Assembly: GCF_001441165.1 (NCBI RefSeq)
Contig: NZ_CP013126.1
Span: forward strand, 2,633,551-2,697,550
Source: Acidipropionibacterium acidipropionici
GTDB lineage: Bacteria; Actinomycetota; Actinomycetes; Propionibacteriales; Propionibacteriaceae
Direction of reading: 5' to 3'
Length of the DNA: 64,000 nt
A model generated the notes under the pieces. It was given only the letters and a program-made list of their open reading frames with translations. It did no database searches and was not told where the DNA came from. The position numbers and the translations under genes were made by a program. Shown piece after piece: positions 3,124 to 14,637 of this stretch (within the stretch, counting starts at the first letter, position 1; each line of letters opens with the position of its first letter).

Positions 3124-4064
3124 GACAGGACAGATCCACGTTCATCGGCGGCCCGGTCATCGACCGGTGCCATCTGGACCGCGACGACCCGGCGGCCAAT
3201 GCCGCCAGGTGGGCCGATCCGGGCGCTGTCCTGCTGCGCATCGGGCCCCGCGGGGAGGCCGCTGTCACCGGGGATCCGGCCCGGCTGGCCGCCGATCGGC
3301 CCTCCGGACGGCGGGACCCGCAGCGTCAGCTCCTCATCGGGACGGTGGCCGGGCGGCCCTGGTTCGTGACCCGAGCCGTCCCCGTCGCCGGCCCGGGGCG
3401 ACGCATCGAGTCGTTGAGAGGCTCCGATCTTCCGCCGGCTCAACGGGAGATCGTCTGGGCGGGGATGGCGGCCCTCAACTGGCACGAGTCCGCCCCCGTG
3501 TGCCCGCGCTGTCACGCCGGCACCCGGGTCGGCGAGGGAGGGCTGAGCAGGATCTGCACCGCCTGCGGCACAGTGGTCTTTCCGCGCACCGATCCGGCGG
3601 TCATCTGTGCCGTCCTCGACGACCGGGACCGGATCGTGCTGGGCCGTCAGCACGCCTGGGAGCCGGGCCGGGTCTCCGTGCTCGCCGGCTTCGTGGAGGC
3701 CGGCGAGGCCGCCGAGCACGCCCTGGTGAGGGAGGTCGCCGAGGAGACGGCGCTGCGGGTCACCGCCGCCCGGTATGTCTCCTCCCAGCCCTGGCCCTTC
3801 CCGCGGTCGCTGATGCTCGGCTATGTGGCGCGGGCCGAGGGGGACATCTCCCCGGTGGACCACGAACTGGCCGAGGCCGATCGCTACAGCCGCGACCAGG
3901 TGAGGGACCTCGTCGCGGCCGGAACCCTCATCCTGCCCTCACCGATGTCCATCGCCCGCAGCCTCATCGAGGCCTGGCTCGCCGACCGCCTGCCCGTCCC
4001 CGAGTCCGGCGCCGACCTGTCGGTCCCGCTGGGAGCGGCGCTCCCAGAGCCGGGCCAGCCCTGA
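3120..4064 (+). CDS. nudC: NAD(+) diphosphatase NudC
   Basis: Nudix hydrolase that splits NAD(H) into NMN(H) and AMP and, in characterised homologues, removes NAD caps from RNA. The protein has 314 residues. A four-cysteine zinc ribbon uses C128, C131, C146 and C149. The Nudix box runs from G190 to about 212 (G-x5-E-x7-RE-x2-EE, with Ala where the last Gly is usual). The NADH-pyrophosphatase signature SQPWPFP is at 222-228 and is followed by SLML. The open frame extends far upstream, but similarity starts near this GTG, which overlaps the adnB stop. Its Shine-Dalgarno-like GGAGGG abuts the start, so translation is probably coupled to adnB. The last 126 nt overlap the 3' end of recD on the other strand. 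Function is secure; the exact start less so. Confidence 0.88.
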   Translation: MRQDRSTFIGGPVIDRCHLDRDDPAANAARWADPGAVLLRIGPRGEAAVTGDPARLAADRPSGRRDPQRQLLIGTVAGRPWFVTRAVPVAGPGRRIESLRGSDLPPAQREIVWAGMAALNWHESAPVCPRCHAGTRVGEGGLSRICTACGTVVFPRTDPAVICAVLDDRDRIVLGRQHAWEPGRVSVLAGFVEAGEAAEHALVREVAEETALRVTAARYVSSQPWPFPRSLMLGYVARAEGDISPVDHELAEADRYSRDQVRDLVAAGTLILPSPMSIARSLIEAWLADRLPVPESGADLSVPLGAALPEPGQP

Positions 4065-5867
4065 GCGTCGTCGGGACGGCTGGGCCACCGCACGGCTCAC
4101 CGACTCGCGGGTGCCCACCACCGTCAGGCCGCGTCTGGCCCGGGTGATGGCGGTGTAGATCAGCTCCCGGGTCAGCAGCGGCGAGTCGGGAGGGGGCAGG
4201 ATCACCGTCACACGGTTGAACTGGGAGCCCTGAGCCTTGTGGACGGTCATCGCCTGAAGGGGACGCAGCGACGCCACCAGGGCGCAGGGCAGTCGCCGCG
4301 GGGCACCCGAGCCGCCCGGCAGAACGACGGTGGGCACCGGATCCTCGGTCACCACGACCCCGCAGTCGCCGTTGTTGATCTCCAGCTGGCGCATATTCCG
4401 GTTGACGATGACCGGCTCGCCGACCACCCAGCGGCCCCGGCCCAGCCCGGGCAGGGCCTCCGACAGGGCGGAGTCCATCTGTCGGGACCACGCCTCGACC
4501 CCGTAGGGCCCCTGACGGTGGGCGCACAGCAGCCGGTGCTCGTCCACCAGCCTCAGGGCCTCCTCGTCGTCGCCGCGGTTCACCGCCTCGAGGGTGTCGG
4601 CGGCCACCGACCGGATCTGCTCGGCCACCTCGGGAAGCTCCTGCAGCCCGACGCCTGCCGCATCCGCGTCGATGAATCCCACCGTCGAGTCGTCGCCGTC
4701 GAGCACGGCCATCACCGCATCCTGGTCCCCGCGGCGCACCGCCTCGGCGAGCCGGGCGATGGCGCCGCCGGAGCGGTGATTGCTGGTGAGGGTGGTGACC
4801 GGCAGCCGCTCGGGGCCCAGACCCGAGGCGGAGGCGACGACGTCGGCCAGGACGCTGCCGGCGTCCACCGAGACGAGCTGGCCGGGATCGCCGACCAGCA
4901 CCAGCCTGGTCGAGGGGCCGACGGCCTCCAACAGCCGGGCGGCCATCGGCAGGGACAGCATCGACGCCTCGTCGACGATCACCACCCCGGCCGCCAGGGG
5001 GTTGCGGGCGTCGTGGCTGAAGCCTCTGCCGGGCCCCCGGGACCCGAGGAGCGCATGCACCGTGGTGGCCTCGACGGAGGCAGGCCGGAATTCCTCGGGC
5101 AGGCCGGCCGCCACCTGGCCGACGGCGTCTCGCAGCCTGGCTGCGGCCTTTCCGCTGGGAGCCGCCAGCCGGACCGGCCCCGGATCGCCGGCCGCCCGGG
5201 CGAGCACCGCGAGGATCGTGCAGACCGTGGTCGTCTTCCCGGTGCCCGGTCCTCCCGCCAGGACGGTGAGGCGGTGCCGGCAGGCCCGCTCCGCGGCCTG
5301 GATCTGGGCGGGGTCCAGAACGGTGCCGGCCTGCCTCAGGGCGCCACCCACCGATTTGACGGCGGCCTCGACGAGGTGATCGGAGAGCTCGTCGGGAGGG
5401 TCGTCCGCCAGGCCGGCCATCAGCTGGGCCACCTGCTGCTCGTCCTGCCAGTACCGCTCGAGGTGGAGGATGCCCTCGTCGAGTCGCAGGGCCCGCCGGT
5501 TGGCCGGGGTCATCGGGCCCGCAACCGCCGGGCTGACCCCCAGCTCCTCGAGCCAGGCGGACGGATCGGGCCACGACAGGGCCTTGAACTCTTCGAGGGC
5601 GGCCAGCTCCCCGGGGCCGGCGGCGGCCACCACGGCCGGGTCGAGGATCTGACGGGCGATGTCCCGGCGGATGGTCGCCGGATCCATCTGGACTGATCCG
5701 AGTCGCAGCTCCCTGACGGTCAGGGCGGCGGCGAGCTCGACGTCGGGGGAGGGCTCCCCGCCGGCCCGGCAGATGAGTCGGGCCAGGTGGACATCGGCGG
5801 CCTCCAGCACGCCGGTGCGGCAGAAGGGGGCCAGATGTCCGGCTGCCACGGGGATGAGATCAGGCAC
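3939..5867 (-). CDS. recD: Exodeoxyribonuclease V alpha subunit RecD
   Basis: SF1B helicase subunit of RecBCD, translocating 5'-3' on DNA ends. The protein has 642 residues. The Walker A GGPGTGKTTT is at 205-214, Walker B VDEAS at 298-302, a GDPGQL motif III at 326-331, and the RecD C-terminal motifs TVHKAQGSQF (541-550) and YTAITRAR (571-578). It is the last gene of a recC-recB-recD operon, and its start overlaps the recB end by 8 nt. The last ~41 residues overlap nudC antisense and look like unselected tail after the conserved AITRAR-x-LTVVG element. With RecB and RecC next to it, assignment as RecD rather than the standalone RecD2 is firm. Confidence 0.93.
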   Translation of the reverse strand: MPDLIPVAAGHLAPFCRTGVLEAADVHLARLICRAGGEPSPDVELAAALTVRELRLGSVQMDPATIRRDIARQILDPAVVAAAGPGELAALEEFKALSWPDPSAWLEELGVSPAVAGPMTPANRRALRLDEGILHLERYWQDEQQVAQLMAGLADDPPDELSDHLVEAAVKSVGGALRQAGTVLDPAQIQAAERACRHRLTVLAGGPGTGKTTTVCTILAVLARAAGDPGPVRLAAPSGKAAARLRDAVGQVAAGLPEEFRPASVEATTVHALLGSRGPGRGFSHDARNPLAAGVVIVDEASMLSLPMAARLLEAVGPSTRLVLVGDPGQLVSVDAGSVLADVVASASGLGPERLPVTTLTSNHRSGGAIARLAEAVRRGDQDAVMAVLDGDDSTVGFIDADAAGVGLQELPEVAEQIRSVAADTLEAVNRGDDEEALRLVDEHRLLCAHRQGPYGVEAWSRQMDSALSEALPGLGRGRWVVGEPVIVNRNMRQLEINNGDCGVVVTEDPVPTVVLPGGSGAPRRLPCALVASLRPLQAMTVHKAQGSQFNRVTVILPPPDSPLLTRELIYTAITRARRGLTVVGTRESVSRAVAQPSRRRSGLARLWERRSQRDRQVGAGLGDGQAVGEPGLDEAAGDGHR

Positions 5868-8800
5868 GGCCCCTCCTCGATTCCGACAGCAGATCGCTGA
5901 CGCGCACCACGAGCTCGGCCGACGGATACCAGGTGAACACCCCGGTGGGCATCGTCGAGTCCGGGGCCCGGCGGCCCGTCATCCCACGGACGAACAGGTA
6001 GCCGACCCCGCCGAGGTGGCGGGAGGGGTCGTAGCCGGCCAGCCGGGAGGCCAGCATGCGGTGCAGCGCCGCGCTGTACAGGATCGCCTGGAGGGGATAG
6101 TGCGAGTCGATCATCATCCGGGCCATGGCCTCGGCGTCGTAGTCGTCGGGCCGCAAGGGCCGGCCGGGAGGCACCGGGATCCGATTGGTCTTGTAGTCGA
6201 TGACGAGGTGTCGGCCGTCGGGCAGGCGCAGCACGGCGTCGATGGAACCGGTGAGGAATCCGGCCAGCGTCCGCTCGGCGGCCGCGGACTCGGCCAGTAC
6301 CTTCCCGTAGCCCGCCAGCGGATCGTCGGGGGCCACCAGGCCCGGGTCGCGCAGCGCGGCGGCCAGGTCGGCCAGGGTGGCGGCCCGATCGGAGCGAGAC
6401 GCCATCGACAGTTCGAAGCCGAGTTCGGCGAGCCGGTTGCCGGTGCCGATGTCGCACAGCCGCCGCCCCGACGTGAGGGCGCCGAGATCAGTCCGCATCA
6501 CCGCGGCGAGCCCCTCGGCCAGCTGCGAGGCGGACACTCCGGGCAGCGGGGTCGAGGCCATCAGGAGCCCGGTCTGCTCGGCGACGTCGGAGTCGAGCCC
6601 CTCGGCGACCGGGCGGACTCGCTCCAGCACGGCGTGGACGAGGGTGCCGAAGGCGGTGCCCCCGGGCATCGCGCACAGGCCCTCCTCGGCCTGAGGATCC
6701 GGGGCGAGGGTCGGGGGATCCTCGTCCACGGGCTCGTCGGAGCCCGCCTCCGGGTCCACCGGGCCGGACACGCCGTGGATCCCGGCGGTGAGGCCGGAGT
6801 AGGAGGTCCGGCCCCAGCGCTCGTCGACGGCCCGGCTCAGGGTCCTGGCGGCCCCGGAGCCCGTCGTCGCACCCTGGGAGGCCAGGCGGAGCGGCCGCTG
6901 GCGGGGGACCGGCGCCACGTCCACGGCGCCGTCCAGCCAGGTGAGCCGGTAGGGATCGATCTGCCCGGTGCCCGGGCCCGGGGTGGCGGGGGCGCGATGA
7001 TCGAAAGCGAGCAGCCGGTGCAGGGAGGATCCTGAATGCTGACGACGGACGGGGGTCCACCACAGCCGCAGGGCCGAACGGGCGCGGGTCATCGCCACGT
7101 AGAGGGTGCGCAGGTCCTCGGCCATCTCGTCCTCGCGGTGGGCACTCCACACCTTCTCCCGGGCCGGTCCCTGGCCACCCAGATCCAGCAGACGACGGTG
7201 GCCGTCGTGCCAGATCACCGGATCTCCGTGATCGCGGGGGGTCCAGGTGCGCGCCACGTCGGGAAGCAGCACCACCGGGAAGCCGAGCCCCTTGGCCTGG
7301 TGGATGGTCATGATGGTGATCGCCCGGCGGTCGGTCTCCAGTCGCCGCGGCGACTCGTCGGCCCCCGCGGACCGCTGGTCGCGGATCCAGTCGGCCACCC
7401 GTCCCGGGGTGCGGAGCGCCCCGAGGCGCCCCGCGGAGGGGGAGGCGGTGCTGATGGCCTCACCGGCGATCTCGCCGGCCTGGCGAAGGTCGGTGACGTA
7501 CCGTTCACCGGCCCGGCCGGCCAGGATCCCGGCCAGCACTCCGGGACGATGGAGGGCCTCGTCGATGACCCCGTGGACCCCGAGGTCGGGCCAGCGCCGG
7601 GCCCAGGAGCCCAGCTGCACCGCAAGATCCGGGCGTATCGCTGAGCCGGGAGCCATGAGTCCGCCGGGGGTGCCGCCGCCCAGGGGGGACAGCGCCAGAC
7701 GGGCGACCACCGGCGGATCGGGCTGCTCGAGCCCGTCCAGCAGGTCGGCCAGGTCGGCGGCGGCCGGCGAACTCCAGATCGAGTCCGCGCCGGTGAACAC
7801 GGCCGGCACGCCGGCCCCCGCCAGTGCGCGCTGGATCTGGGCGCCGCGCCGACGGGTGCGCACCAGGACCGCGATGTCGCGGGGCTCCAGGGCCCGGTCC
7901 CCGTCCTCGTCGGCCCACATCGAGCCGCCCTCCAGCATCATGACGACCTGATTGACCAGGTCCTCCTCCACGAGTCGGTCCGCCTCGTCGGGTTTGAGGG
8001 TCGAGGGGCCCTCCTGCTGGATGCACCGCAGCTGGACCGGGTGGGACCAGTCGTAGCGTCGAGAGCCGATCGCCGGGCCGCTGATCCGCGACTGCCGGTG
8101 CCATGCCGACACGGGTTCCAGGCGGATGCGCGGATCGCCGAGCAGGGCCGGACCGAAGATCCGTGAGACCCCCTCGACGACGGGGGCGTCGGCACGCCGG
8201 TTGACGGTGAGGGCCAGTACCCGGTCGACGGCTCCGACGGCGTCCAGATAGGCGTGGATGTCGGCTCCCCGGAAGGCGTAGATGGACTGCTTCGGGTCGC
8301 CGATGAGCCACAGGTCCACCCGTCCACGGAAGGCCCGGTCGAGCACCTGCCACTGCAGCGGGTCGGTGTCCTGGAACTCGTCGACCAGCACGAGCCGGAA
8401 CTGCGAGGTCAATGCCGCCACCGCGTCGGGGCCGCGCCCCGGGTCGGCGAGGGCGGCGGCCAGGTCGGCGATGAGATCGTCGAAGGTGTGCTGGTGCGCG
8501 GCTCTGCGGCGTCTCTCGGACTCCTCGCGCACCGCGCGCGCCCACGCCAGCCGTGCCGTCGCCCCGGCGGTGGCCTCGGCCTGCCCCAGCGCCACCTCGG
8601 GATGCGAGACCGCCGCCTCCTGGCCCAGCCGCAGCCACGGGCCGGCCGACGGTGGACGGTCGTCGTCGAGATGGGTGCGCAGGAAGAGGTCCCGTCCCAC
8701 CTGGTCGGCCATCACCGACGGGTCGGCCAGCAGCCGGGAGGTGGGGTCGTGGTCGGCCAGGACGCCCAGCTGCGCGAGCATCCGTGCGGAGAACTCGTGG

Positions 8801-9162
8801 GTCGTGGTGATCGTCGCGTCCTCGAAACTGTCGACGGCCCGGTCGAGGCGGGCCGCCATCGCTGCGCGGGTCGCGTCGTCGCAGCCCGCCAGAAGCTCGT
8901 CGAGCTCATCGACGGGCCGACGGTCGCCGGCGAGCAGGTCGCGGCAGTCCACGAGGCGGGCATGCACCCTGGCGCGCAGCTCACGGGCCGCCGACCGGTT
9001 GAAGGTGGCCAGCAGCACCTGACCGATCCGCACCCGGCCGGAGGCGATCGCCCTGGCCACGATGGAGGCGATCGTCCAGGTCTTCCCGGTTCCGGCACTG
9101 GCCTCCAGAAGAGTCGTGCCCCGTGGAAGCTCGTCGGTGATGTCGAAGACCGGGGTGATCAT
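5860..9162 (-). CDS. recB: Exodeoxyribonuclease V beta subunit RecB
   Basis: SF1A helicase plus nuclease subunit of RecBCD, 1100 residues. Walker A EASAGTGKT begins at residue 20. Walker B VDEFQDTDP is followed by GDPKQSIYAFRGAD (motif III) and TIHQAKGLGFP (motif V). LYVAMTRARSAL is motif VI. The C-terminal nuclease has the conserved His in FGTLVHAVLERV and the catalytic block IDAVL...VIDYKTN (D...D-x-K), so nuclease activity should be intact. The start codon overlaps the recC stop as ATGA, which indicates translational coupling. The ASAGTGKT P-loop is typical of RecB and distinguishes it from AdnA/AdnB and UvrD. Confidence 0.94.
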   Translation of the reverse strand: MITPVFDITDELPRGTTLLEASAGTGKTWTIASIVARAIASGRVRIGQVLLATFNRSAARELRARVHARLVDCRDLLAGDRRPVDELDELLAGCDDATRAAMAARLDRAVDSFEDATITTTHEFSARMLAQLGVLADHDPTSRLLADPSVMADQVGRDLFLRTHLDDDRPPSAGPWLRLGQEAAVSHPEVALGQAEATAGATARLAWARAVREESERRRRAAHQHTFDDLIADLAAALADPGRGPDAVAALTSQFRLVLVDEFQDTDPLQWQVLDRAFRGRVDLWLIGDPKQSIYAFRGADIHAYLDAVGAVDRVLALTVNRRADAPVVEGVSRIFGPALLGDPRIRLEPVSAWHRQSRISGPAIGSRRYDWSHPVQLRCIQQEGPSTLKPDEADRLVEEDLVNQVVMMLEGGSMWADEDGDRALEPRDIAVLVRTRRRGAQIQRALAGAGVPAVFTGADSIWSSPAAADLADLLDGLEQPDPPVVARLALSPLGGGTPGGLMAPGSAIRPDLAVQLGSWARRWPDLGVHGVIDEALHRPGVLAGILAGRAGERYVTDLRQAGEIAGEAISTASPSAGRLGALRTPGRVADWIRDQRSAGADESPRRLETDRRAITIMTIHQAKGLGFPVVLLPDVARTWTPRDHGDPVIWHDGHRRLLDLGGQGPAREKVWSAHREDEMAEDLRTLYVAMTRARSALRLWWTPVRRQHSGSSLHRLLAFDHRAPATPGPGTGQIDPYRLTWLDGAVDVAPVPRQRPLRLASQGATTGSGAARTLSRAVDERWGRTSYSGLTAGIHGVSGPVDPEAGSDEPVDEDPPTLAPDPQAEEGLCAMPGGTAFGTLVHAVLERVRPVAEGLDSDVAEQTGLLMASTPLPGVSASQLAEGLAAVMRTDLGALTSGRRLCDIGTGNRLAELGFELSMASRSDRAATLADLAAALRDPGLVAPDDPLAGYGKVLAESAAAERTLAGFLTGSIDAVLRLPDGRHLVIDYKTNRIPVPPGRPLRPDDYDAEAMARMMIDSHYPLQAILYSAALHRMLASRLAGYDPSRHLGGVGYLFVRGMTGRRAPDSTMPTGVFTWYPSAELVVRVSDLLSESRRGRA

Positions 9163-12100
9163 CTCGGCCCTCCGGTCGACGCCGCCATCAACGGTCCGAG
9201 AAGCCAGCCGGACAGCTCCTCGGCGCTGGTGCCGACCCCGGTGCAGGCCGCCCTCCAGCCCTCCTCGGTGTCGTCGAGGAAGGCAGCCCAGTCGGAATCA
9301 TGGTCGCGGGCCCACTGCACCCCGACCCCGCTGCGTCCGGTGGCCCAGTCCGAGGAGGGCCCGCGGACCAGACCCGCCACCACCGCCGCGGTCCGCAGCG
9401 GAAGCGGCACCAGCTGCTGGCCCGACCACCAGGCCAGTCGGGCCAGGCCCGCCAGAAGCTCGGTGGAGCGCTCGGTACCCGGCGCCGTCATCACCCTGGC
9501 CGGCGAGTTGGAGGCCAGCACGGCGCGCCACGGGCCGGGTGCCAAGGCGCTCACCGCGAGAAGGTCGATCCACAGCGCCAGGAGGTCCCGGGCCGAGGCC
9601 CGGGACGCGGAGGTGCGCACCAGAGCCCGACCCCACACCTGCACCCTGCCCTCCAGACGCAGTGGACGGTCGGGGTCGGTGAGGGAGCCGGGCGGGAGGA
9701 CGAGGGGGGCGAGCGCGCCGCCGCTCAGCTCCAGATCGATGCCGACGAACCCGCAGGAGGCGTCCCCGCGCGCCCGACGGGCGTCGGCGAGGATGCTCGC
9801 GGCACGGTCGGCCTGGACGCGCAGCGGACCCAGACCGAGTTCGCCGGGAGGGGTGGATCCCCGCAGGCGCTCGGCGGTGAGGGCCTCGGCGCTCGAGGCC
9901 CCGGCCTCCAGGTCGGCCAGCAGACGGGAGCGCACCCCGTAGCCGTCCAGGGCCCCGAGCTCCAGGGGCAGCTCCTCGTCCGGCACGCTGCGCCACGACC
10001 GGGTGTCGGTGCCCAACCGGGTGCGCAGCAGCGCGCGGGCCGGGTGGCTCAGCACGGCGGCGAGGTCGGCGGGGGAATACACCCCCGACGGCAGGTCGAC
10101 GGCCGGGGGCAGGGGTGCGACGCCGCCGTGCGTGTCCGGAGGCGTCGAGGTGCCGACAGACACGGCGGGGTCGAAGCTTCGCCACGCGGGCCTGTCCCTC
10201 GCGGGCTCGGCGGGACGCTCGGCCGGCGAGAAGGGCTGGAGCCCGTGGGTGACGGTGAGGGCTGCAGGGCAGGCCCCGGCCGCCCTCAGAGCCGCGTCGA
10301 GGGTGGTGGCGAAGGGACCGGGAAGCACGGTGGCGTTGGTCACCGGGTCCAGCGCCTGACGCACCACGACCAGGCGACGGCGGGCCGATGCCAGGGCGTC
10401 GACGAGCAGCTGGCGGCTCAGCGCCGCGGAGTCCCGCTCAGGATCGTCGGCGCGCCGCAGCCCGGGAAGCTCCTCGGCCGGGGCGGTCGAGGAGTCGGGG
10501 TCGGCGATCACCACGACGGCATGCGCGATGCCGTCCAGATCGGCGGGCGCGCAGACCTGGACGGCCCCGTCGAAGAATGCCGCGCGACGGCGGTCGACGG
10601 TGCGCCTCTCCAGGATGTCGGCGATCCGCGAGGAGTCCATCACCGCATCCGGGCACGCCCGGGACAGTTCGGTGAGTGCACCCACCACGGCGGGACCCGC
10701 CCACTGCTGGTCGGAGGAGTCGGCGACCTCGTCGACGATCCGGGCCACCCTTGTCGACCACTGCGCGAGGGTGGCCGGTTCGGCGCAGTCGAGCATCGCC
10801 CGGCGCAGGCGCGACACGAGCTCGGCGAGACGACCCACCAGATCCACGTCGGCGGAGCCGACGCCGTCCAGCGGCGTCACGGTGGCCAACCATCCCGGAG
10901 GGGCCGGTGCCATCGCCGCGCCCAGCAGCATCCGTTCGATCCCCGCCATCCAGGTGGACTGGCGGACCTTCGGGAGGCCGGCGGCCCGGCGGGATCCCGC
11001 ATCGACACCCCACCGGATGCCCGAGTCCTCGACGAGGCGGGCGATGGTGGCGAGGTCGTCGGCGGAGAAACCGAACCGCCGCGAGACCACGGGCAGGGCG
11101 CACAGGTCGACCAGGTCGGTCGCGGTGGCCCGGACGGAATGCAGTCGCAGCACCGTCAGCACCGCCTCGGCCACCGGGTTGGGGCGGTCGGGGGCCGAGG
11201 CGGCCACGCGGATCCGACGCCCGGGATGCTGAGCCTCCCGCGACCCCGGATCGGACGCGGCGGTGAGGCCGGCCAGCAGCTGGGGCAGCCTGCTTGCCTC
11301 GGGGCAGACCACCAGGAGATCGCGGGGCTCGAGGTCCTCCATGTCGGCCAGCGCGTCGCACAGCACGTCGCGGATCACCTCGGCCTGCCTGTCAGGGCCG
11401 TGGCAGTCGTGGATCACGACCGTCCCATCGGTTCCGGCAGCCTCGACCGTGGTGCCGGAGCCTCCGGGGGAACCGGCCACGCCGGCGCGCAACCGGGCGA
11501 GCAGATCGGGGCCGGTGGCGGGTGGGGCCGCCGCCCGCGGGGGCTCGGGGCCGGTACCTAGGGAGCGGGCCCAGGCCGTGGTGCCTGCCGGGCGCACCCG
11601 GTCGAAGGCCGACCAGGGTCCCCGGACGGTGTCCCCGCGGGCCGGGTCGTCCTGGTCGAGATGGATCACCGTGGTGGTCAGGGCCTCTGCCAGCGCGGCC
11701 GCCAGCTCCCGATCGAGAGGGGAGGTCGACGCGGGGGCGAGCCACAGGCAGTCCCGCCACGGGAGCACGGCCCCGCCGATCGCCTCCAACAGCATCCGGT
11801 GGCGTCGGACGGGTTCGGGACGGCCCGTGTCCTGGTGCACCAGACGCGCCCACAGCGGGGCCCACCACCGGTGCGCGGGGTCCAGCGGGGACCCGTCGGC
11901 AAGGGTCTCGCGGCCCTCGGCCCAGCCCGACAGCAGTTCCGGCCAGGAGTCGGCGATCCGCAGCAGGGATCCGGCGGTCTGGCGTGCCAGATCCCACCCC
12001 GGGGACGGCACCCCCGAGGCGCTCAACCGCGCCAGATGGGCGCGGACCGCATCGAGCCACGGTGCCGGGTCGGTCTCGATGAGGGCGTCGATCCTCAGCG

Positions 12101-12404
12101 CGAGGGCGTCGGCCCGCCACGGGTCGCCCTGCTCGGCCAGACCCAGCAGGCGATGCTCGAGGTCGGTGCGCAGCCGGCGGGGGGAGCGCCCGGACAGGCC
12201 GGCGGCGACCCCCCGGCGGCGCGCCACCTGCTGTGCCAGGGCCAGGGCGTGAGCCCTGGACGGGGTCACCAGCAGGGGCAGTGAGAAGGGGTCGTCGGTC
12301 GGGCCCGTCAGCACCTCGACCGCGGCGTCGACGACCTGCTCCCAGTCTCGTGCCACGATGAGCCGGGGGGCACGGGGCCGACCCGCGGAAGTCGTCGTGC
12401 TCAT
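9159..12404 (-). CDS. recC: Exodeoxyribonuclease V gamma subunit RecC
   Basis: RecC scaffold and Chi-recognition subunit, 1081 residues, first gene of the recCBD operon. RecC folds like a helicase-nuclease but is degenerate: the N-terminal VTPSRAHALALAQQVA stands where a P-loop would be, and no Walker motif is present. Blocks such as DLLVVCPEASRLPQLL and VAEAVLTVLRLHSVRATATD are recognisable RecC elements. Identification relies mainly on length, the lack of ATPase motifs and linkage to recB and recD. The ATG at 12404 is preceded by a GAGGAGG Shine-Dalgarno about 5 nt away. The divergent 130-bp gap to uvrD2 carries a damage-type promoter (see 12454-12476). Confidence 0.9.
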   Translation of the reverse strand: MSTTTSAGRPRAPRLIVARDWEQVVDAAVEVLTGPTDDPFSLPLLVTPSRAHALALAQQVARRRGVAAGLSGRSPRRLRTDLEHRLLGLAEQGDPWRADALALRIDALIETDPAPWLDAVRAHLARLSASGVPSPGWDLARQTAGSLLRIADSWPELLSGWAEGRETLADGSPLDPAHRWWAPLWARLVHQDTGRPEPVRRHRMLLEAIGGAVLPWRDCLWLAPASTSPLDRELAAALAEALTTTVIHLDQDDPARGDTVRGPWSAFDRVRPAGTTAWARSLGTGPEPPRAAAPPATGPDLLARLRAGVAGSPGGSGTTVEAAGTDGTVVIHDCHGPDRQAEVIRDVLCDALADMEDLEPRDLLVVCPEASRLPQLLAGLTAASDPGSREAQHPGRRIRVAASAPDRPNPVAEAVLTVLRLHSVRATATDLVDLCALPVVSRRFGFSADDLATIARLVEDSGIRWGVDAGSRRAAGLPKVRQSTWMAGIERMLLGAAMAPAPPGWLATVTPLDGVGSADVDLVGRLAELVSRLRRAMLDCAEPATLAQWSTRVARIVDEVADSSDQQWAGPAVVGALTELSRACPDAVMDSSRIADILERRTVDRRRAAFFDGAVQVCAPADLDGIAHAVVVIADPDSSTAPAEELPGLRRADDPERDSAALSRQLLVDALASARRRLVVVRQALDPVTNATVLPGPFATTLDAALRAAGACPAALTVTHGLQPFSPAERPAEPARDRPAWRSFDPAVSVGTSTPPDTHGGVAPLPPAVDLPSGVYSPADLAAVLSHPARALLRTRLGTDTRSWRSVPDEELPLELGALDGYGVRSRLLADLEAGASSAEALTAERLRGSTPPGELGLGPLRVQADRAASILADARRARGDASCGFVGIDLELSGGALAPLVLPPGSLTDPDRPLRLEGRVQVWGRALVRTSASRASARDLLALWIDLLAVSALAPGPWRAVLASNSPARVMTAPGTERSTELLAGLARLAWWSGQQLVPLPLRTAAVVAGLVRGPSSDWATGRSGVGVQWARDHDSDWAAFLDDTEEGWRAACTGVGTSAEELSGWLLGPLMAASTGGPR

Positions 12405-12451
12405 CGGGCCTCCTCACTCGCGTCCCACGTGGACGATCCGGCGTCTCACAC

Positions 12452-12465
12452 GGACGATATCGTCC
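12452..12465. other. 14-bp perfect palindrome in recC/uvrD2 gap
   Basis: GGACGATATCGTCC is a perfect inverted repeat. A further GGACGAT half-site lies at 12431-12437, 21 bp (two helical turns) away. It covers the putative recC -10 element and could be an operator, or simply part of the promoter. Confidence 0.4.
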
Positions 12466-12476
12466 CGGACCGACAG
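12454..12476 (-). promoter_or_regulatory. Putative PafBC/DNA-damage-type promoter of recCBD
   Basis: Read on the minus strand this is CTGTCGGTC, then 8 nt, then TATCGT. The reported mycobacterial LexA-independent damage promoter is TTGTCRGTG-N8-TANNNT, so 7 of 9 upstream bases, the exact 8-nt gap and the -10 pattern agree. Predicted transcription start is near 12447, about 43 nt before the recC ATG. A 14-bp perfect palindrome (12452-12465) covers the -10. The consensus is from memory, and binding is inferred. Confidence 0.5.
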
Positions 12477-12520
12477 CGGGGCCCGGACCGCCACCCGCAG
12501 CATGCGTCGGCCGGGGGACC

Positions 12521-12526
12521 TAGAGT
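12521..12526 (+). promoter_or_regulatory. -10 element, leaderless uvrD2 transcript
   Basis: TAGAGT followed by 8 nt and the GTG start codon at 12535. No Shine-Dalgarno is present. Transcription would begin at or next to the start codon. Confidence 0.55.
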
Positions 12527-12534
12527 CTGGGGAC

Positions 12535-14637
12535 GTGACAGGACGACCGGCAGACCAGATCCTTGAGGCCCTCGATCCCGAGCAGCGCGAGGTGGCCTCC
12601 ACCTTCGGCGTCCCGGTGTGCGTGGTGGCCGGGGCCGGCACCGGCAAGACCCGGGCGATCACCCACCGCATCGCCTACGCCGCGGCCATCGGGCGCGCGG
12701 ATCCCCGTCGCACCCTGGCGGTGACCTTCACCACCCGGGCGGCGGGCACCATGAAGGCCAGGCTGGCGGGGCTGGGGGTGCCGGGGGTCCAGGCCCGCAC
12801 GATCCATTCGGCCGCCCTGAGGCAGGTGCGCTACTTCTGGCCGCGGGCCTACGGCTGCGAGCTTCCGCCGGTCAGCGACGCGCGGTTCAGAATGCTCGGC
12901 GAGTCGGCCCGGCGGGCCGGCCTGAGCGTCGACACCGCGCTGCTGCGGGATCTGTCCGCGGAGGTCTCCTGGGCGAAGGTCACCAACGTCTCCTCCGACG
13001 AGTACCCGGCCCTCGCCCGCGCCCGGTCGCGCATCGTCGCAGGCGTGTCGGCGGCCACCGTGGGACGGGTCCTGGCCGGCTACGAGGCCGTCAAGCAGGA
13101 GGCCTGCGTCATCGATCTGGACGACATCCTGCTGTGCGCGGTGGGCCTGTTGAGCGACCATCCCGACATCGCCGCGGAGGTCCACGACCAGTACCGGCAC
13201 TTCGTCGTCGACGAGTACCAGGACGTGTCCCCGGTGCAGCACACCCTGCTCGAGCTGTGGTTTAACGGGCGCGACGACGTGTGCGTTGTCGGCGACCCGC
13301 ACCAGTCGATCCACGCCTTCGCCGGAGCGCGATCCGACTACCTCACAGGATTCCTCGACGAACATCCGGGGGCGGCGCGGGTGGAGCTGGTGCGGAACTA
13401 CCGGTCGACCCCGGAGATCGTGGATCTGGCCAATGAGGTCCTCGTCCACAACCTCGGGTCCGACGAGGAGGCCGGCCGGGGCGGAGTGCGGCTCGTGGCC
13501 CGGGGCTCCCACGGCCCGGCCCCCCAGTTCACCGCCCACCAGGATGAGACCGCCGAGGCCTCGGCGGTGGCGAGCTGGCTGTCGGACCTCCACAGGGGCG
13601 GCGTCGACTGGTCCGAGCTGGCGGTGCTGCACCGCGTCAACTCCCAGGCTCCCGCTCTGGAGGCGGCGCTGGCCGAGGCCGGAATCCCGTACCTGGTCAA
13701 GGGCGCCGAGAGGTTCTTTGACCGCGCCGAGGTCCGCAGGGCCATCGTCGCCGTGACCACCGCAGCCCGCAACCCGGACCCCGAACCCGGTCAGGCTCTC
13801 GCCCGCACCGACGAGGTGCTGTCGGCGCAGGGCTGGACGCCGCTGGCACCCGAGGGCCAGGGCAGCGTCCGCCAGCGGTGGGAATCCCTTCAGGCCCTTC
13901 ACGACCTCGCCGCGAAGGTGGCGTCGTCGGATCCCACGGCCACCCTGGCCGACGTGGCCGCCTCCTTCTCCCAACGGGCCCGGCTCCAGCAGGCGCCCAC
14001 CATCGACGGGGTCGCCGTCTCGACGATGCATGCGGCCAAGGGGCTGGAGTGGCAGGGGGTCGCGGTGGTCGGGGCCAGCGACGCGATGATGCCCTTCATG
14101 ATGGCCGAGGGGCCTCAGGAGATCGCCGAGGAGAGACGGCTTCTCCACGTCGCGGTCACCAGGGCCCGGGAGCATCTGCTCGTCACCTTCGCCAGGTCCA
14201 GTACCGCCAAGGGACGATACGGCATCTCGCGGTTCCTGCGGGGCATGCCCGGCACACCCGAGGGGACCAGCGCCGCCGGGCCGAGGCGCAGACGCCGGGG
14301 GGCCAGGATCGCGACCTGCACGGTGTGCGGCGGGCCGCTCACCGCGGGGGCCGACCGCAAGCTCGGCCACCACCTGGCCTGCGAGGTCGACGTCGATCCG
14401 GCGGTCGTCGACCGGTTGAGGGCCTGGCGCAGCGACCGGGCCGGCCGCGACCGGGTGCCGGCCTTCGTCGTCCTCACCGACGCCACCCTGCTGGCGGTCG
14501 CCGAGCGGATGCCCGCCGATGTCGAGGAGCTGGGCGTCATCTCTGGTATCGGGCCCCGCAAGATCGAGCGCTACGCCGCCGAGCTGCTGACAGCGCTGCA
14601 TTCCGACTCCGCCCGCACCGGCGCCGGGCCCGACTGA
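12535..14637 (+). CDS. uvrD2: UvrD2-type ATP-dependent DNA helicase with HRDC domain
   Basis: SF1A 3'-5' helicase of the actinobacterial UvrD2 family, 700 residues. Walker A GAGTGKT is at 33-39, Walker B VDEYQDVSP near residue 225, and STMHAAKGLEW and LLHVAVTRAREHL are motifs V and VI. After the helicase core comes a CTVC...C-containing linker (about 594-616) and a C-terminal HRDC domain (about 625-695, with VISGIGPRKIERY). This is the architecture described for mycobacterial UvrD2, where the Cys motif joins the two parts. The frame is open 59 codons further upstream, but GTG 12535 sits 8 nt after a TANNNT box and fits a leaderless start. The 3' end overlaps the convergent E1-like gene by 67 nt. 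It lies divergent to recC. Confidence 0.92.
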   Translation: MTGRPADQILEALDPEQREVASTFGVPVCVVAGAGTGKTRAITHRIAYAAAIGRADPRRTLAVTFTTRAAGTMKARLAGLGVPGVQARTIHSAALRQVRYFWPRAYGCELPPVSDARFRMLGESARRAGLSVDTALLRDLSAEVSWAKVTNVSSDEYPALARARSRIVAGVSAATVGRVLAGYEAVKQEACVIDLDDILLCAVGLLSDHPDIAAEVHDQYRHFVVDEYQDVSPVQHTLLELWFNGRDDVCVVGDPHQSIHAFAGARSDYLTGFLDEHPGAARVELVRNYRSTPEIVDLANEVLVHNLGSDEEAGRGGVRLVARGSHGPAPQFTAHQDETAEASAVASWLSDLHRGGVDWSELAVLHRVNSQAPALEAALAEAGIPYLVKGAERFFDRAEVRRAIVAVTTAARNPDPEPGQALARTDEVLSAQGWTPLAPEGQGSVRQRWESLQALHDLAAKVASSDPTATLADVAASFSQRARLQQAPTIDGVAVSTMHAAKGLEWQGVAVVGASDAMMPFMMAEGPQEIAEERRLLHVAVTRAREHLLVTFARSSTAKGRYGISRFLRGMPGTPEGTSAAGPRRRRRGARIATCTVCGGPLTAGADRKLGHHLACEVDVDPAVVDRLRAWRSDRAGRDRVPAFVVLTDATLLAVAERMPADVEELGVISGIGPRKIERYAAELLTALHSDSARTGAGPD

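What the first reader, a model, noticed from the sequence alone, without database searches (positions are those of the whole stretch)
12454..12476. DNA-damage-type (PafBC-like) promoter before recCBD
Minus strand CTGTCGGTC-N8-TATCGT matches the reported TTGTCRGTG-N8-TANNNT motif at 7 of 9 upstream positions with exact spacing and a valid -10. It is 43 nt before a recC start that has a proper Shine-Dalgarno. It would place RecBCD under the LexA-independent damage response in this lineage.
Basis: partly seen in the sequence, partly recalled or inferred. Interest (0 to 1): 0.55.

Follow-up and report, generated by a model that had tools for sequence, protein, structure and literature searches.

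The report
DNA-damage promoter before recCBD genes
The short DNA switch spotted before the recCBD repair genes looks genuine: most related bacteria examined carry it in the same place, often paired with a second switch for a neighbouring helicase gene, and this genus seems to have kept that damage response while losing the classic LexA/SOS one.

Summary
The site is real: CTGTCGGTC-N8-TATCGT at 12454-12476 (-), 49 nt before recC. In 112 family genomes examined (own included), TGTC-N12-TANNNT precedes recC in 94; reversed-pattern controls gave 1 and 0. recA, the positive control, has it in 29 of 30, perfectly in this genome. Genome-wide the core has 26 hits against 7 controls, before uvrA, polA, recG, ruvB, priA and others; 13 have a start codon 6-7 nt after the -10. 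PafB and PafC are encoded. A weaker element, 12504-12526 (+), faces a divergent UvrD/HRDC helicase; 58 of 112 family genomes have a strict one. No LexA DNA-binding domain was found in the five genus genomes. The principle is known: RecBCD belongs to the M. smegmatis PafBC regulon (PMC8223512). New here: conservation across a second family, the bidirectional arrangement, and PafBC apparently acting without LexA. Against: the window site scores low among its kind, two of five genus genomes lack the upstream element and a third has a remnant, and strict conservation outside the family is 2 of 14. No expression data.

The parts
12454..12476 (-). PafBC-type (RecA-NDp) promoter of recCBD: -26 element CTGTCGGTC (12468-12476), 8-nt spacer, -10 TATCGT (12454-12459)
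   Evidence: rank 1 in window with relatives' matrix; conserved spacing
12409..12415 (-). Shine-Dalgarno GAGGAGG of recC
   Evidence: read
9159..12404 (-). recC (exodeoxyribonuclease V gamma), first gene of recCBD
   Evidence: ORF; TIGR01450 E 1e-90, below the curated cut-off
5860..9162 (-). recB, start overlapping the end of recC
   Evidence: TIGR00609 E 2e-152, below the curated cut-off
3939..5867 (-). recD, start overlapping the end of recB
   Evidence: TIGR01447 E 6.7e-113, above cut-off
12504..12526 (+). Divergent PafBC-like element GCGTCGGCC-N8-TAGAGT, back to back with the recC site (27 bp between the two); 4 mismatches to the consensus and not the strict core
   Evidence: rank 2 in window; strict form in 58 of 112 family genomes; in 59 of 59 antisense-hit genomes the helicase frame lies downstream
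12535..14637 (+). UvrD-family helicase with HRDC domain (UvrD2-like), GTG start 8 nt after the -10, so probably leaderless
   Evidence: Pfam UvrD-helicase, UvrD_C, HRDC; start chosen by me from the -10 and relatives' starts

Best explanation
12454-12476 (-) is a PafBC-dependent promoter. When damage exposes single-stranded DNA, PafB-PafC binds it through the WYL domains, joins RNA polymerase-sigma A, and PafB reads the -26 element CTGTCGGTC while the polymerase melts the -10 TATCGT, giving a recCBD mRNA with a leader of about 42-43 nt. A weaker matching element on the other strand drives a leaderless mRNA of the UvrD/HRDC helicase, so two DNA-processing machines rise together from one bidirectional region. 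Shown here: the elements, their conservation, the encoded PafB/PafC, the repair-gene company of the motif, and the missing LexA domain. Inferred from mycobacterial work: binding, ssDNA trigger, induction by damage.
For: TGTC-N12-TANNNT before recC in 94 of 112 family genomes (own included); other spacings 6-18 give at most 2; reversed controls 1 and 0. 23 of 46 in the first set against shuffle mean 0.1, maximum 2. No hit on either strand in 140,278 bases of those 46 loci beyond 100 nt inside recC. recA positive control 29 of 30, perfect in G000. Genome: 26 core hits against 7 reversed, 13 with ATG/GTG 6-7 nt after the -10. Downstream genes include recA, uvrA, polA, recG, ruvB, priA, a gyrB/parE-like subunit and a DEDD exonuclease with a UvrC-like part. 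PafB and PafC match solved M. smegmatis and A. aurescens PafBC; HTH_PafC present. No sigma-70-type promoter found in 12380-12600. No SOS box in 126 recC upstream regions.
Against: The window site scores 12.9, below the 5th percentile (14.4) of the training sites. In the genus G002 and G004 keep only the -10 side and G003 only GTC upstream. Outside the family strict conservation is 2 of 14. The helicase-side element of the window has 4 mismatches to the consensus. In M. tuberculosis RecBCD was not induced by mitomycin and no regulatory element was found (PMC8151990, passages). Family genomes are related, so the 94 are not independent events. No transcription start, binding or induction data exist for this organism.
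Confidence: 0.85

Rival explanations
1. The window site is a decayed element: recCBD is transcribed from the -10 (GGACGATATCGT) as a constitutive promoter, and PafBC control is lost or marginal in this genus.
For: Score below the 5th percentile of relatives' sites; G002 and G004 keep GACGATATGGT but not the upstream element.
Against: The upstream element is intact in both G000 and G001, 20 of 23 positions equal while flanks diverge; it still ranks first in the window.
Confidence: 0.1
2. The element is read by another activator, such as ClgR or a different WYL protein, rather than PafBC.
For: ClgR was reported to recognise the P1 motif in M. smegmatis (PMC5656591, passages); G000 has two further WYL proteins.
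Against: PMC11804915 (passages) describes PafB engaging the -26 motif in the initiation complex; PafB matches occur in 57 of 57 genomes searched.
Confidence: 0.05
3. Chance match in a GC-rich divergent intergenic region.
For: The 2-mismatch consensus alone gives 4 window matches against 1.17 expected.
Against: Exact spacing, strand and position repeat in 94 of 112 family genomes with controls of 1 and 0.
Confidence: 0.02

Closest known systems
RecA-NDp / P1 promoters controlled by PafBC in mycobacteria (Gamulin 2004 and Muller 2018, not read; as described in passages of PMC5656591 and PMC8223512)
   Same: Same -26 element, 8-nt spacer and TANNNT; same company (recA, uvrA, recombination genes); RecBCD is named as a regulon member in M. 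smegmatis.
   Different: Propionibacteriaceae; recCBD and a UvrD/HRDC helicase share a bidirectional region; half of the genome's core sites look leaderless; no LexA domain found in this genus.
LexA-controlled SOS promoters of actinobacteria
   Same: In 24 of 30 genomes recA carries an SOS box (one in shortened form) besides the PafBC-type element.
   Different: No such box near recC in 126 regions, none before recA in the four genus genomes checked, no LexA DNA-binding domain in the genus.

Membership tests
PafBC (RecA-NDp) promoter | -26 element resembling TTGTCRGTG | tested here: met
   7 of 9, TGTCGGT intact; C at position 1 in 50% and at position 9 in 20% of relatives' recC sites
PafBC (RecA-NDp) promoter | 8-nt spacing to TANNNT | tested here: met
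   exact; other spacings 6-18 at most 2 of 112 on the recC strand
PafBC (RecA-NDp) promoter | no housekeeping -35 element | tested here: met
   0 sigma-70-type sites in 12380-12600; a simple consensus scan only
PafBC (RecA-NDp) promoter | genome encodes PafB and PafC | tested here: met
   adjacent WYL genes; matches to 7p5x chains and HTH_PafC
PafBC (RecA-NDp) promoter | placed before DNA repair genes and conserved at orthologues | tested here: met
   94 of 112 family genomes at recC, 29 of 30 at recA
PafBC (RecA-NDp) promoter | conserved within the genus at recC | tested here: inconclusive
   strict form in G000 and G001 only; G003 a remnant; G002 and G004 lack it
PafBC (RecA-NDp) promoter | damage-inducible, PafBC-bound transcription | not testable with these tools
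   needs RNA and ChIP data
LexA/SOS promoter | SOS box CGAAC-N4-GTTCG near the promoter, LexA encoded | tested here: not met
   0 of 126 recC regions; no LexA domain in five genus genomes

The most novel reading that the evidence does not exclude
In this genus PafBC has replaced SOS: LexA and the recA SOS box are gone, and one ssDNA-sensing activator runs repair (recA, recCBD, uvrA, polA, recG, priA, ruvB) and also anti-phage defence. Eight of the 26 core sites, picked by eye, were compared with PADLOC and all eight matched; leaving out one with generic helicase matches, seven lie before DUF4062, TmtA-like, MzaC-like, NOV_C, DUF4011, Mrr and AAA_21 genes, three with a start codon 6-7 nt after the -10. 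Phage replication or DNA ends would then switch on repair and defence together.
Probability: 0.35. Interest if true: 0.75.

Novelty: new member of a known kind. Interest (0 to 1): 0.5.

Why it matters
RecBCD is a powerful nuclease that repairs ends and, by established knowledge from E. coli, destroys phage DNA, so its regulation matters. This lineage offers a natural test of PafBC control without a LexA background, in a group for which the open library held no paper naming both PafBC and Propionibacteri*. It also gives a sharp rule (TGTC-N12-TANNNT, often with a start codon 6-8 nt later) to predict damage-inducible genes in Propionibacteriaceae.

Tried and rejected
Rejected: SOS control of recC (no box in 126 regions); a standard sigma-70 promoter; chance. 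The first conservation scan read minus-strand loci in the wrong orientation and is replaced. The RecC search in named genomes found two relatives, which named the genus. A plasmid search for relatives of two defence-like genes gave 1202 and 32 records, all under 60% identity; the one actinobacterial record fetched has the Z1 gene overlapping the upstream gene and was not scanned. Genome sites that I judge to be chance: L138 (inside a type I specificity gene), L142 and L152.

Sampling: of 191 family genomes with a RecC match, 32 were in the first set and 80 of the other 159 were picked by hand from the printed list, 61 of them with alignments reaching the RecC N terminus; 79 were not looked at. 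recA: the 30 genomes given loci, of 56 with a match. For PADLOC I gave 8 of 26 sites' genes, chosen because they looked defence-like, with no control set. In one search the recC frame was recognised downstream in 74 of 97 sense-hit genomes; in 23 it was not, probably because the fragments are short. The chance figure for leaderless starts (about 1.4 of 26) is a hand estimate from base composition.

Full report
OBSERVATION. The minus strand at 12454-12476 reads CTGTCGGTCCGGGACGATATCGT. Against tTGTCRgtg-8 nt-TannnT, the consensus quoted in PMC5656591 (passage), 7 of 9 upstream positions match, the spacer is exact and the -10 fits. The recC ATG is at 12404, 49 nt from the motif, with GAGGAGG at 12409-12415; recC, recB and recD overlap end to start. 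RecC and RecB match their models strongly but below the curated cut-offs, RecD above. Alone the match is not striking: 4 matches with up to 2 mismatches in the window, 1.17 expected; 243 in the genome against 114 for the reversed pattern.

CONSERVATION AT recC. RecC was found in 46 of 57 genomes, own included. In their upstream regions TGTC-N12-TANNNT occurs in 23 of 46, with no hit at any other spacing from 2 to 21 on that strand; 200 shuffles gave a mean of 0.1, maximum 2. Of 159 further family genomes with RecC I took 80 by hand: 73 of 80 have it. Together the family gives 94 of 112 strict and 102 of 112 when the first T may be any base; reversed-pattern controls gave 1 and 0 (strict), 3 and 8 (relaxed). 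Outside the family, in the same order, it is 2 of 14 strict and 3 of 14 relaxed; several of these show CTGTCGG at the right distance from a weaker -10 with a GTG about 7 nt later. No hit occurred on either strand in 140,278 bases of the 46 loci beyond 100 nt inside recC. Where the recC frame was recognised downstream (74 of 97 sense-hit genomes), the nearest in-frame start is 6-10 nt after the -10 in 54 of 74; the window's recC, 49 nt away with a Shine-Dalgarno, is not of that leaderless type.

WITHIN THE GENUS. G001 keeps CTGTCGGTCACGGACGCTATCGT, 20 of 23 positions equal, while the flanks diverge. G002 and G004 keep a -10 (GACGATATGGT) but not the upstream element, and G003 has only AAGTC there. 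By its distribution the element is ancestral in the family, kept in the window's species and its nearest relative, and probably lost or weakened elsewhere in the genus. The window site is weak: matrix score 12.9, below the 5th percentile (14.4) of the 153 training sites, yet first of all window positions. The training sites were chosen by the strict core, so this rank is not fully independent of it.

A SECOND, DIVERGENT ELEMENT. On the plus strand 12504-12526 reads GCGTCGGCCGGGGGACCTAGAGT, rank 2 in the window. It has 4 mismatches to the consensus and not the strict core. Eight bases after its -10 a GTG (12535) opens a 700-residue UvrD-family helicase with an HRDC domain. The strict form occurs on this strand in 58 of 112 family genomes, the relaxed in 72 of 112 against a reversed control of 8. 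In 59 of 59 antisense-hit genomes among the 126 regions the helicase frame lies downstream, in 54 of 59 with the nearest in-frame start 6-8 nt after the -10. In the genus G002 has the strict form. The two window elements lie back to back, 27 bp apart. UvrD2-like is my name from the UvrD plus HRDC domains (recalled comparison with mycobacterial UvrD2).

REGULATOR AND REGULON. Two adjacent WYL genes in the genome are PafB and PafC: they match M. smegmatis PafBC chains of 7p5x (species name recalled) and the A. aurescens fusion 6sj9, and PafC has the HTH_PafC domain. PafB matches occur in 57 of 57 genomes. The recA upstream region has the element in 29 of 30 genomes (30 of the 56 with RecA), without mismatch in G000. 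Genome-wide, TGTCRG-N10-TANNNT has 26 hits against 7 for the reversed pattern, so about a quarter may be chance. Thirteen of the 26 have an ATG or GTG opening at least 100 codons exactly 6 or 7 nt after the -10; my hand estimate for chance is about 1.4. Downstream genes by profile include recA; uvrA, polA, ruvB, RNase PH, a gyrB/parE-like subunit and a DEDD exonuclease with a UvrC-like part over a curated cut-off; recG and priA below it; and SNF2 and ResIII helicases. Less expected ones are a penicillin-binding protein and a tyrosine phosphatase.

LOSS OF LexA. The LexA DNA-binding domain (PF01726) is over cut-off in 51 of 57 genomes; the six without are the five genus genomes (no match) and G016 of genus g13 (weak match). 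In 197 family genomes 184 are over cut-off; the 12 with no match are the five genus genomes and seven others, all drafts in 100 or more contigs, 59-97% complete. With the full LexA model, G000, G001, G003 and G004 have nothing, G002 a partial match at positions 77-199, and seven of nine g13 genomes a divergent form below cut-off. In G134 and G078 lexA lies between a helicase gene and nrdR; in G000 those neighbours (found by tblastn, named by eye) are present with a small ORF and a gap of about 130 nt, and the relatives' lexA frames gave no hit there. The SOS box before recA was not found in G000, G001, G002, G004, G016 and G025, and was found in the other 24 of 30, one shortened. G003 recA was not examined. 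The genus is Acidipropionibacterium: G004 shares its contig length with A. jensenii DSM 20535 and G003 with an Acidipropionibacterium MAG. That G000 is A. acidipropionici and G001 A. virtanenii is my recollection of genome sizes. P. freudenreichii is reported to have lexA (PMC2909200, passage), and a C. acnes lexA is assayed in PMC11264938 (passages).

MECHANISM. From PMC11804915 (passages): PafBC is activated by ssDNA at the WYL domains, inserts between promoter and sigma A domain 4, and PafB contacts the -26 motif. Applied here, damage would raise RecBCD and the helicase together. The conservation and company of the element are shown; binding, trigger and induction are inferred.

KNOWN OR NEW. 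The review PMC8223512 (passages) lists RecBCD and AdnAB in the M. smegmatis PafBC regulon and says the motif extends to other actinobacteria; a table passage of PMC5656591 lists RecB at -1.6 among proteins altered by pafBC deletion. PMC8151990 (passages) reports no induction of RecBCD by mitomycin and no element in M. tuberculosis, and PMC9380542 (passages) says an initial search suggested that the motif is not conserved in S. venezuelae. So the kind is known. No paper in the open library held both RecA-NDp and recC, PafBC and Propionibacteri*, or Acidipropionibacterium and LexA; the library lacks most subscription papers. Muller 2018 and Gamulin 2004 were not read.

DEFENCE LEAD. I gave PADLOC eight of the 26 downstream genes, those that looked defence-like; all eight matched some model, with no control set. 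L141 matches look generic (helicase and sigma parts) and I leave it out. The seven are L031 DUF4062, L032 TmtA-like, L033 MzaC-like, L036 NOV_C, L139 DUF4011, L140 Mrr, L143 AAA_21. Only L031, L036 and L143 have starts 6-7 nt after the -10; L033 lies inside an upstream open frame and the L140 start is 164 nt away. A listing for PafBC with anti-phage and related terms (20 of 112 shown) showed WYL regulators in defence (for example the SiwR abstract, PMC10693628), but no title or abstract start on PafBC control of defence genes. Seen in one genome only; offered as a lead.

Noticed in passing
G000 loci L031, L032, L033, L036, L139, L140, L143: PafBC-type core elements before genes that match anti-phage defence models; three have start codons 6-7 nt after the -10.
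   Followed up: partly
L154:13230-13363 (G000) against L126 and L128: lexA is missing from between its usual neighbours; no LexA DNA-binding domain was found in the five genus genomes.
   Followed up: yes
L129, L130, L132-L136 (genus g13): Seven of nine g13 genomes carry a divergent LexA-like protein below the model's cut-off, two a normal one; whether the divergent form still binds SOS boxes is unknown.
   Followed up: no
L141:2088-5000 (G000): One long frame, cut by the end of the locus, with a ResIII/helicase part followed by sigma-70 regions 1.2, 2 and 4: an unusual fusion of helicase and sigma factor, or a frame artefact.
   Followed up: no
L035 and L037 (G000): Core elements with start codons 6-7 nt downstream before a penicillin-binding protein and a tyrosine phosphatase, unexpected members if real.
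   Followed up: no
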